A DNA stretch of 64,000 bases from Deltaproteobacteria bacterium RIFOXYD12_FULL_56_24 (GTDB taxonomy: Bacteria; Desulfobacterota; Desulfobulbia; Desulfobulbales; Desulfurivibrionaceae), in the NCBI GenBank assembly GCA_001799285.1, contig MGTD01000007.1:124001-188000 (forward strand), given 5' to 3'. The notes under the pieces are model-generated. The model did no database searches. It was not told the origin of the DNA and saw only the letters and a list, made by a program, of their open reading frames with translations. The position numbers and the translations under genes are program-made. Positions 43,372 to 44,993 of this stretch are shown in pieces (the first letter of the stretch is position 1; each line of letters begins with the position of its first letter).

Positions 43372-43631
43372 AGTGTAACGGATCACCGTCCTCAGCGTGA
43401 ACGCTTTATAGCTGAAGGTGGAAAAGGTAGTCAACCCTCCCATAAAGCTTCCCATAAGGCCAATGCGCAGATTCTACGAGATGAGAGTACTGCGCAGGCC
43501 ATATTCTATCACCAAACCGATGAGAAAGGCACCGACAATGTTGACCGCAAAGGTTCCATAAGAAAAGTCCCGCCCAGATGGGCATAGACCCCCAACGCTC
43601 CGAATCCCGCGATGAAGACAGCGGTTGTCAT
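43372..43631 (-). pseudogene. crcB: Decayed fluoride channel gene crcB
   Basis: Minus-strand fragments MTTAVFIAGFGALGVYAH.. / SYGTFAVNIVGAFLIGLVIEYGLRSTLIS* / NLRIGLMGSFMGGLTTFSTFSYKAFTLRT in two frames with an in-frame stop. Confidence 0.78.
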
Positions 43632-44848
43632 GTTCGGATCGCATGAAGAATATATCTTTCCTTGGTCGTTTTGCCCATGAAGAACATCAAAACAATGAAC
43701 AACAGTGCGGCAAGGCTTGCCGTGGCCGCACCGAAGTAAAAGGTTGCCGCCGGCGAGACGCGATCCCACAACAGCCCACCGATCAGGCTGGCCGGGAACA
43801 TGGCCAACCCCACGGTTGCGGCATAGACCCCGAAAGCGGTGGCCTTGAAATCAGGAGGAATGATGGTGGCCAGAAACGCCTTTTGAATCCCCTCGGTAAA
43901 CCCCATGAACAGACCATAGAGCCCGAACAGGATCCAGATGGTTTCCGTATTCCTGGCGACGGCAAAACCGTAATACAATCCGGCGAACAACATGAAGCCC
44001 AGCAGGATGATCCTCTTTCTGCCGAATCTGTCCGCCGCCATCCCTGCCGGAATCGCCGACAAGGAATAAACAAGATTGAAGACCAGATAAACCGCCGGAA
44101 TCAACACCGTCGGGATGCCGATCTGCTCTGCCCGCAGGATCAGAAAAGCATCACTGGAATTGCCGAGGGAGAAGAGGGTTGCGATGATGAGGAAGAATTT
44201 GACCTTCCAGTCAAAATGGCGCCAACGCAGCGTTGGCCACTCTGCATGGGGCACCGGGGGCTTTTTCTTTTCCTTGACAAAGAGGATGATCAGGGCCACC
44301 GCTATGACGCCTGGGATCATCGAGAGCCAAAAGACCAGGCGGTAGTCGTTGCTGAAAAGTCCCAGGAGCGAAAGGGTGATGGCAGGCCCGACCACTGCCC
44401 CTAGGGTGTCCATCGAACGATGAAAGCTGAAGGCCCTGCCCAGATGGGTTGCCTGGGCGGATTCGGCAATGATCGCATCCCGTGGAGCGGTGCGGATTCC
44501 TTTGCCGACCCGGTCGGTAAAGCGTGAGGCCAAGACGTGCTGCCAGGCTCCGGCCAAAGCGATGATCGGTCGGCTCAATGTGGAAATGGTGTAGCCGACA
44601 ACCATCAGGCCTTTGCGTTGCCCGCTCCGGTCTGAAAACCAGCCGGAAAAAATCTTGAGCAGGCTGGCCGTCGACTCGGCAAGCCCCTCGATCAGGCCGA
44701 TCATGGACTTGTTGACTCCCAAGACGTTGGCCAGGAAGAGCGGCACCAGCGGGTAGATCATCTCGGAACTCACATCCATGAAAAAACTGACCAGTCCCGT
44801 AACAAAGACGTTCCTGCCGAAGCCGAAATAGGTTTTTTCTTTTGCCAC
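43628..44848 (-). CDS. MFS transporter downstream of a fluoride riboswitch
   Basis: Multiple TM segments; GWFSDRSGQRKGLMVVGY, RFTDRVGKGIRTAPRDA; GTG start at VAKEKTYFG with GAGGAAG SD. Confidence 0.85.
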   Translation of the reverse strand: MAKEKTYFGFGRNVFVTGLVSFFMDVSSEMIYPLVPLFLANVLGVNKSMIGLIEGLAESTASLLKIFSGWFSDRSGQRKGLMVVGYTISTLSRPIIALAGAWQHVLASRFTDRVGKGIRTAPRDAIIAESAQATHLGRAFSFHRSMDTLGAVVGPAITLSLLGLFSNDYRLVFWLSMIPGVIAVALIILFVKEKKKPPVPHAEWPTLRWRHFDWKVKFFLIIATLFSLGNSSDAFLILRAEQIGIPTVLIPAVYLVFNLVYSLSAIPAGMAADRFGRKRIILLGFMLFAGLYYGFAVARNTETIWILFGLYGLFMGFTEGIQKAFLATIIPPDFKATAFGVYAATVGLAMFPASLIGGLLWDRVSPAATFYFGAATASLAALLFIVLMFFMGKTTKERYILHAIRT

Positions 44849-44872
44849 TGGGGCTTCCTCAAGGTGGGGACA

Positions 44873-44957
44873 TAAAAAAACTCCTACCCTTGGTTCAAGA
44901 GTAGGAGTCATTAGCTTCGTCGGGGAAGCGCGCAAAGGCGAACTCCATCGCCATCAT
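44873..44957 (-). promoter_or_regulatory. Fluoride riboswitch (crcB motif) with intrinsic terminator
   Basis: Minus strand: ATGATGGCGATGGAGTTCGCC...GAAGCTAATGACTCCTACTCTTGAACCAAGGGTAGGAGTTTTTTT. Confidence 0.93.
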
Positions 44958-44964
44958 TGTGGTA

Positions 44965-44993
44965 AGCCTAGATCATGATTCCCGGATTGTCAA
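44965..44993 (-). promoter_or_regulatory. Promoter of the fluoride-riboswitch transcript
   Basis: Minus strand TTGACA-17-TAGGCT just upstream of the aptamer. Confidence 0.65.

What the first reader, a model, noticed from the sequence alone, without database searches (positions are those of the whole stretch)
43372..44993. Fluoride riboswitch controlling an MFS transporter, with crcB decayed downstream
On the minus strand a TTGACA-17-TAGGCT promoter leads into a near-textbook fluoride riboswitch (GGCGATGGAGTTCGCC ... GCTAATGACTCCTAC) and terminator. The first gene is an MFS transporter, followed with ATGA coupling by a crcB remnant carrying a frameshift, an in-frame TAG and missing segments. 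If crcB is dead, the MFS protein may have taken over fluoride export, or fluoride resistance lies elsewhere. Canonical riboswitch targets are CrcB/Fluc and CLC-F, so an MFS fluoride-responsive exporter would be noteworthy.
Basis: partly seen in the sequence, partly recalled or inferred. Interest (0 to 1): 0.85.

Follow-up and report, generated by a model that had tools for sequence, protein, structure and literature searches.

The report
Fluoride-switched MFS transporter beside dead crcB
A bacterial RNA switch that senses toxic fluoride controls an uncharacterised transporter which, across many species of at least two phyla, keeps turning up in fluoride-defence gene clusters; here the usual fluoride channel gene next to it has rotted away, but an intact copy survives elsewhere in the genome.

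Summary
Window 44895-44961(-) is a fluoride riboswitch (RF01734, 39.4 bits), the only one in this genome, with a terminator that shares its 3' strand. It leads an intact MFS gene (43628-44845) and then a crcB pseudogene (30-nt and 8-nt deletions, a 1-nt frameshift, a TAG). A ~157-bp repeat with ~40 genomic copies occupies the place of the 3' end of crcB and of a DUF190 gene that relatives still have. The MFS did not replace crcB: sister species carry riboswitch-MFS-crcB-DUF190 intact, and this genome keeps an intact crcB on another contig. MFS/riboswitch genomes have CrcB more often, not less, than other riboswitch genomes. The MFS is nevertheless a real part of the fluoride regulon. Of 80 orthologue loci (Desulfobacterota, Nitrospirota, others), 30 carry a fluoride riboswitch within about 3.5 kb; 27 of 32 riboswitches lie upstream on the same strand, with crcB, DUF190, enolase, Na+/H+ antiporter and Usp as neighbours. 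The MFS is under purifying selection (dN/dS 0.13). I found no paper naming this clade in fluoride biology. Substrate unknown: fluoride itself is possible (~0.2); an accessory exporter working beside CrcB is more likely.

The parts
44965..44993 (-). promoter TTGACA-17-TAGGCT
   Evidence: sequence; conserved position in congeners; not reported by the sigma-70 scan
44895..44961 (-). fluoride riboswitch aptamer (RF01734)
   Evidence: 39.4 bits, E 2e-7; 9 pairs covary across 22 relatives, 0/500 shuffles reach the covariation score
44874..44909 (-). intrinsic terminator / expression platform overlapping the aptamer 3' strand
   Evidence: 14-pair stem plus T-run; conserved in ten MFS leaders
44854..44860 (-). 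ribosome-binding site GAGGAAG before the GTG start
   Evidence: sequence
43628..44845 (-). MFS transporter, 405 aa, GTG start, intact, under purifying selection
   Evidence: PF07690 E 6e-45; AlphaFold pLDDT 87, MFS fold; dN/dS 0.13 against two sister species
43384..43631 (-). crcB pseudogene (crcB2): 30-nt deletion near 43592, 1-nt frameshift near 43573, TAG 43476-43474, 8-nt deletion near 43391, 3' end lost
   Evidence: alignment with intact G007 and G014 copies; HMM hits; coordinates
43209..43365 (-). ~157-bp interspersed repeat with inverted ends GTAACCGTTCA...TGAACGGTTAC, sitting where crcB 3' end and DUF190 are in relatives
   Evidence: about 40 copies at 78-94% identity in this genome, unique flanks; inverted arms
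42476..43168 (-). downstream 230-aa gene, syntenic anchor (start of the following gene pair)
   Evidence: same order after DUF190 in G007, G014, G013

Best explanation
This is a fluoride-inducible operon. Shown by sequence: an ON-type riboswitch whose aptamer 3' strand is shared with a terminator; an intact MFS gene; a dead crcB2; loss of DUF190 at a repeat. Inferred: when fluoride binds with Mg2+ the terminator cannot form and the MFS gene is transcribed. The MFS is a conserved accessory exporter of the fluoride response that works beside CrcB, not a recent stand-in for it. It carries the antiporter-type TM5 motif G149-x3-G153-P154 and invariant membrane acidic and basic residues, so a proton-coupled efflux pump is the likeliest mechanism. 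I think it more likely exports a secondary toxic species of fluoride stress (a metal or metal-fluoride complex, or a metabolite piling up behind inhibited enolase) than free fluoride. Fluoride export itself is left to the intact, riboswitch-free crcB1 on another contig.
For: Riboswitch and terminator. Intact ancestral order riboswitch-MFS-crcB-DUF190 in sister species. In the genus, the riboswitch and this MFS occur in the same 9 of 17 genomes (p 4e-5). Of 80 orthologue loci, 30 have a fluoride riboswitch (0.11 riboswitches expected in that much DNA), 27 of 32 upstream on the same strand, p 3e-12. Neighbours are crcB, DUF190, enolase, Na/H exchanger, Usp, HAD, dynamin-like. Riboswitch-linked members are scattered through the whole clade. 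Purifying selection on the MFS in this genome equals that in sisters with crcB. Intact crcB1. CrcB is enriched in riboswitch/MFS genomes. 40-46% sister MFS proteins sit in plasmid metal-resistance neighbourhoods.
Against: Most orthologue loci (50 of 80) show no riboswitch within the fetched flank, so a fluoride role of every member is not shown. No transport or fluoride phenotype exists for any member. The exported substance is inferred from context only. crcB1 expression is not known.
Confidence: 0.6

Rival explanations
1. The MFS is itself a fluoride exporter, an F-/H+ antiporter that parallels CLC-F, forming a third prokaryotic family of fluoride exporters.
For: It is the only transporter directly behind the riboswitch in G000, G006, G012 and L143. 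Five genomes with riboswitch + MFS have neither CrcB nor any CLC, and three more have no CrcB and only CLCs without the GNNLI motif. Clade-specific basic residues R92, H142-R143, K322 replace K, RQ and non-basic residues of the sister clade.
Against: It usually sits beside CrcB and is enriched with it; 66% of riboswitch genomes in the phylum lack CrcB anyway, so the exporter-less genomes are not exceptional. Most of those genomes are MAGs of unstated completeness. No MFS is known to carry a free halide as its main substrate (own knowledge).
Confidence: 0.2
2. The MFS is a metal or divalent-cation transporter induced by fluoride because fluoride disturbs Mg/Ca/Mn or forms Al/Be complexes.
For: Sister MFS proteins at 41-46% identity neighbour a P-type ATPase/CadR/FTR1 cluster, ArsR and dmeF genes on plasmids. 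[quoted passage not shown]
Against: The residues that differ between the clades lie in the putative transport path (RFSE to GNSSD, RQ to HR, TQG to TEG), so the substrate may have changed. No metal gene lies in the fluoride-linked operons.
Confidence: 0.3
3. Chance association: the MFS is an unrelated multidrug pump that happens to lie behind a riboswitch here and in near relatives.
For: 50 of 80 orthologue loci have no riboswitch nearby.
Against: About 300-fold more riboswitches than expected around the gene, orientation bias p 3e-12, several different operon orders in two phyla.
Confidence: 0.03
4. The crcB lesions are assembly errors and the operon is intact.
For: The genome is a draft with 67 contigs.
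Against: Four separate lesions plus replacement of DUF190 by a repeat that has unique flanks at each of the copies compared; the MFS gene immediately upstream is clean. The repeat could mislead an assembler, but it would not create the upstream lesions.
Confidence: 0.04

Closest known systems
Fluoride riboswitch RF01734 (crcB motif)
   Same: Sequence, both helices, full model length, terminator overlapping the aptamer, 5' leader position
   Different: Controls an MFS gene first, rather than crcB or eriC
CrcB/Fluc fluoride channel operons with DUF190
   Same: Sister species have intact crcB and DUF190 directly behind the MFS
   Different: Here crcB2 is dead and DUF190 is gone
CLC-F fluoride/proton antiporters under fluoride riboswitches
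   Same: Functional analogy only: riboswitch-controlled secondary transporter; in a Candidatus Manganitrophus plasmid a 42% MFS relative lies 266 bp behind riboswitch-CLC-F
   Different: Unrelated fold and family; no fluoride transport shown
Six-gene fluoride operon of Enterobacter cloacae FRM (ppaC, uspA, eno, gpmA, crcB, orf5249; PMC5533749)
   Same: Multi-gene riboswitch operon; eno, usp and crcB also accompany the MFS clade
   Different: No MFS in the E. cloacae operon as read here
MFS drug/H+ antiporters (NorA, LmrP, YajR) and plasmid metal-resistance MFS proteins
   Same: Fold (TM 0.70-0.78), TM5 antiporter-type motif, 41-46% identity to plasmid homologues
   Different: At most 18% identity to solved structures; clade-specific residues and fluoride-operon context

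Membership tests
Fluoride riboswitch RF01734 | Covariance-model score above gathering, full length | tested here: met
   39.4 bits against 34, positions 1-64 of 64
Fluoride riboswitch RF01734 | Conserved helices with covariation across relatives | tested here: met
   96.9% cells paired, covariation score 0.401 against 0.147 shuffled, 0/500
Fluoride riboswitch RF01734 | Binds fluoride and switches transcription | not testable with these tools
   needs in-line probing and transcription assay
CrcB/Fluc (remnant) | Intact ~125-aa CRCB open reading frame | tested here: not met
   frameshift, TAG and deletions; only model positions 24-77 of 103 left
MFS (PF07690) | Profile match and 12-helix MFS fold | tested here: met
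   E 6e-45; model pLDDT 86.6 with PDB MFS hits E 8e-12
Fluoride regulon gene | Recurrent position in fluoride-riboswitch operons in independent lineages | tested here: met
   30 of 80 loci, several operon orders, two phyla; 11 of 60 fetched riboswitch sites have an MFS downstream, though only two at 59-70% identity
Fluoride exporter (functional class) | Replaces CrcB/CLC-F across genomes | tested here: inconclusive
   8 of 22 riboswitch/MFS genomes lack CrcB (5 lack CLC too), but the base rate of lacking CrcB is 66%
Fluoride exporter (functional class) | Transports F- | not testable with these tools
   needs liposome or cell efflux assay
CLC-F in this genome | GNNLI-type selectivity motif in the genome's CLC | tested here: not met
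   single CLC (C24, 592 aa, CBS) has GYGFP and GVFAP

The most novel reading that the evidence does not exclude
The clade of riboswitch-linked MFS proteins (signature GNSSD, HR..D, TEG..KA) is a third prokaryotic family of fluoride exporters, a proton-coupled MFS antiporter used with or instead of CrcB and CLC-F.
Probability: 0.2. Interest if true: 0.85.

Novelty: new variant of a known kind. Interest (0 to 1): 0.5.

Why it matters
Known prokaryotic fluoride exporters belong to two families, Fluc and CLC-F, and the reviews read here list antiporters, phosphatases, enolase and pyrophosphatase as the other common riboswitch targets. A conserved, selected MFS clade in fluoride operons of Desulfobacterota and Nitrospirota is a transporter with a known inducer and unknown cargo. 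Finding the cargo would either add an exporter family or reveal which secondary poison cells must pump out under fluoride. It also bears on strains built for defluorination of organofluorines.

Tried and rejected
MFS took over from dead crcB: rejected as stated, because the order is ancestral and a second crcB is intact. Genomes lacking CrcB as proof of replacement: looked promising (8 of 22) until the base rate (66% of riboswitch genomes lack CrcB) was computed. CLC-F elsewhere in this genome: the single CLC is not of that type. Substrate by profile: NCBIfam gives only sub-threshold generic MFS hits. Substrate by fold: Foldseek gives generic MFS matches, NorA, MFSD10, YajR, OxlT. Riboswitch frequency in clade A against sister clade: suggestive but the sister sample is small, p 0.09, and the clade-A count entered was 31 where 30 is correct. 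Phages: no match. Literature: no relevant paper joins 'fluoride riboswitch' with MFS terms in the held library; Baker 2012 and Stockbridge 2012 are not held, so I cannot exclude that an MFS is listed in their supplements.

Full report
What is there. On the minus strand the order is promoter, fluoride riboswitch, terminator, MFS gene, crcB remnant, repeat, then a 230-aa and a 332-aa gene. The aptamer is RF01734 at 44961-44895, 39.4 bits, over its full length, the only Rfam match in the window and the only fluoride riboswitch in the 3.04-Mb draft genome. The aptamer's GACTCCTAC forms the 5' arm of a 14-pair terminator stem followed by seven T; the leader folds 5.2 sd better than shuffles. This is the usual ON-switch layout. 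Terminator and promoter region are kept in congeners.

The MFS. The 405-aa protein is a PF07690 member with a confident MFS model (pLDDT 86.6, pTM 0.86) whose nearest solved structures are generic (NorA, MFSD10, YajR, OxlT, TM 0.70-0.78). No NCBIfam model passes its cut-off. Against the sister species the gene shows dN/dS 0.126, equal to the value between the two sisters that still have crcB (0.128), so it is in use here.

The dead crcB. G007 and G014 (92-94% identical MFS) carry MFS, intact crcB, intact DUF190 and the same downstream genes. Aligned to them, the window's crcB has lost 30 nt around the LARYYLSSW segment, has a 1-nt deletion, TAG at 43476-43474 and an 8-nt deletion; homology then ends. 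From 43365 to 43209 lies a repeat with inverted ends that has about 40 relatives in this genome at 78-94% identity, each of those compared with unique flanks, and few in congeners. DUF190 is absent. Whether the repeat caused the deletion or landed in an already dead gene cannot be told.

Another crcB. A second CrcB, 42% identical to the sisters' crcB2, is intact on contig C14 with its own DUF190 and is widespread in the genus. It has no riboswitch. The single CLC of the genome is not of the fluoride type. Loss of crcB2 was therefore tolerable without any new exporter.

Is the MFS really a fluoride gene? In the genus the riboswitch and this MFS are found in exactly the same 9 of 17 genomes (p 4e-5). 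A scan of species genomes returned 80 orthologue loci, 63-93% identical, from Desulfobulbales and other deltaproteobacterial lineages, Nitrospirota, Chlorobi and a few others. A covariance model built here found 32 riboswitches in 30 of them, where about 0.1 would be expected; 27 of 32 lie upstream on the same strand. Orders differ: riboswitch-MFS-crcB-DUF190, riboswitch-crcB-DUF190-MFS(-eno), riboswitch-Na/H exchanger-Usp-MFS(-crcB), riboswitch-MFS-eno, riboswitch-dynamin-(eno or HAD)-MFS. Five further loci have TauE-MFS-crcB without a detected riboswitch, most with DUF190 too. Riboswitch-linked members are scattered over the whole clade. Repeated assembly into differently ordered fluoride operons is hard to explain unless the protein serves fluoride tolerance. 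Other, distant MFS proteins (27-39%) also lie in riboswitch operons of the phylum; 11 of 60 fetched sites have some MFS downstream.

What does it carry? Three readings were weighed. Direct fluoride export: five riboswitch/MFS genomes have neither CrcB nor CLC and three more have only non-fluoride CLCs. The control blunts this: in a 398-genome phylum sample 104 of 158 riboswitch genomes lack CrcB, and riboswitch/MFS genomes are in fact richer in CrcB (14 of 22 against 54 of 158, p 0.01; part of the 22 lies outside that phylum). Metal handling: the sister clade at 41-46% identity sits in plasmid metal neighbourhoods, but it differs from the fluoride clade at RFSE/GNSSD, RQ/HR, K92/R92 and TQG/TEG, while two 37-39% relatives that are riboswitch-linked (L079, L264) share the fluoride-type residues. 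Metabolite export: enolase is a frequent neighbour, but it is a common fluoride-regulon gene in any case. The TM5 G-x3-GP motif and invariant D24, E28, E53, E57, K64, R108, R118, R122, D146 fit a proton-coupled exporter (inference from MFS knowledge). I commit to an accessory exporter acting beside CrcB, with free fluoride as cargo at about 0.2.

Novelty. The riboswitch and the CrcB decay are ordinary. The MFS clade as a recurrent fluoride-regulon transporter was not found in the literature available here; two founding papers could not be read, so priority is not claimed.

Noticed in passing
window 43209-43365: ~157-bp palindromic interspersed repeat (ends GTAACCGTTCA / TGAACGGTTAC), about 40 copies in this genome and few in congeners; MITE-like, no coding gene assigned.
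   Followed up: partly
L220 2858-6152 (CP114559, Candidatus Manganitrophus plasmid): Fluoride riboswitch followed by a 591-aa CLC with GNNLI motif that is missing from the plasmid gene table, then a 42% MFS relative.
   Followed up: partly
phylum survey: A dynamin-like GTPase is among the commonest first genes behind fluoride riboswitches in this phylum (roughly 20 of 60 sites, 25-42% identity to the L136 type); I know no explanation for this.
   Followed up: no
L247, L258, L259, L269, L243, L272: Distant MFS proteins (27-30% identity to the window's) also lie in fluoride riboswitch operons, in three cases in order crcB, Na/H exchanger, Usp, MFS, enolase; relatives lie next to the window-type MFS in L132 and L173.
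   Followed up: partly
phylum survey: Fluoride riboswitch and CrcB presence are negatively associated across 398 genomes (54 of 158 against 127 of 240; p 3e-4).
   Followed up: no
L065 5203-5267 (same site as L118 3384-3448): Degenerate fluoride riboswitch (30.9 bits with R1) still in front of the MFS, while a strong riboswitch drives enolase-crcB on the opposite strand of the same contig.
   Followed up: partly
G366 and G422: Genomes with 11 and 7 fluoride riboswitches respectively.
   Followed up: no
L110, L111, L112, L116, L120 upstream of the MFS: A TauE/SafE family permease gene directly precedes MFS-crcB (DUF190 in four of the five) in loci without a detected riboswitch.
   Followed up: no
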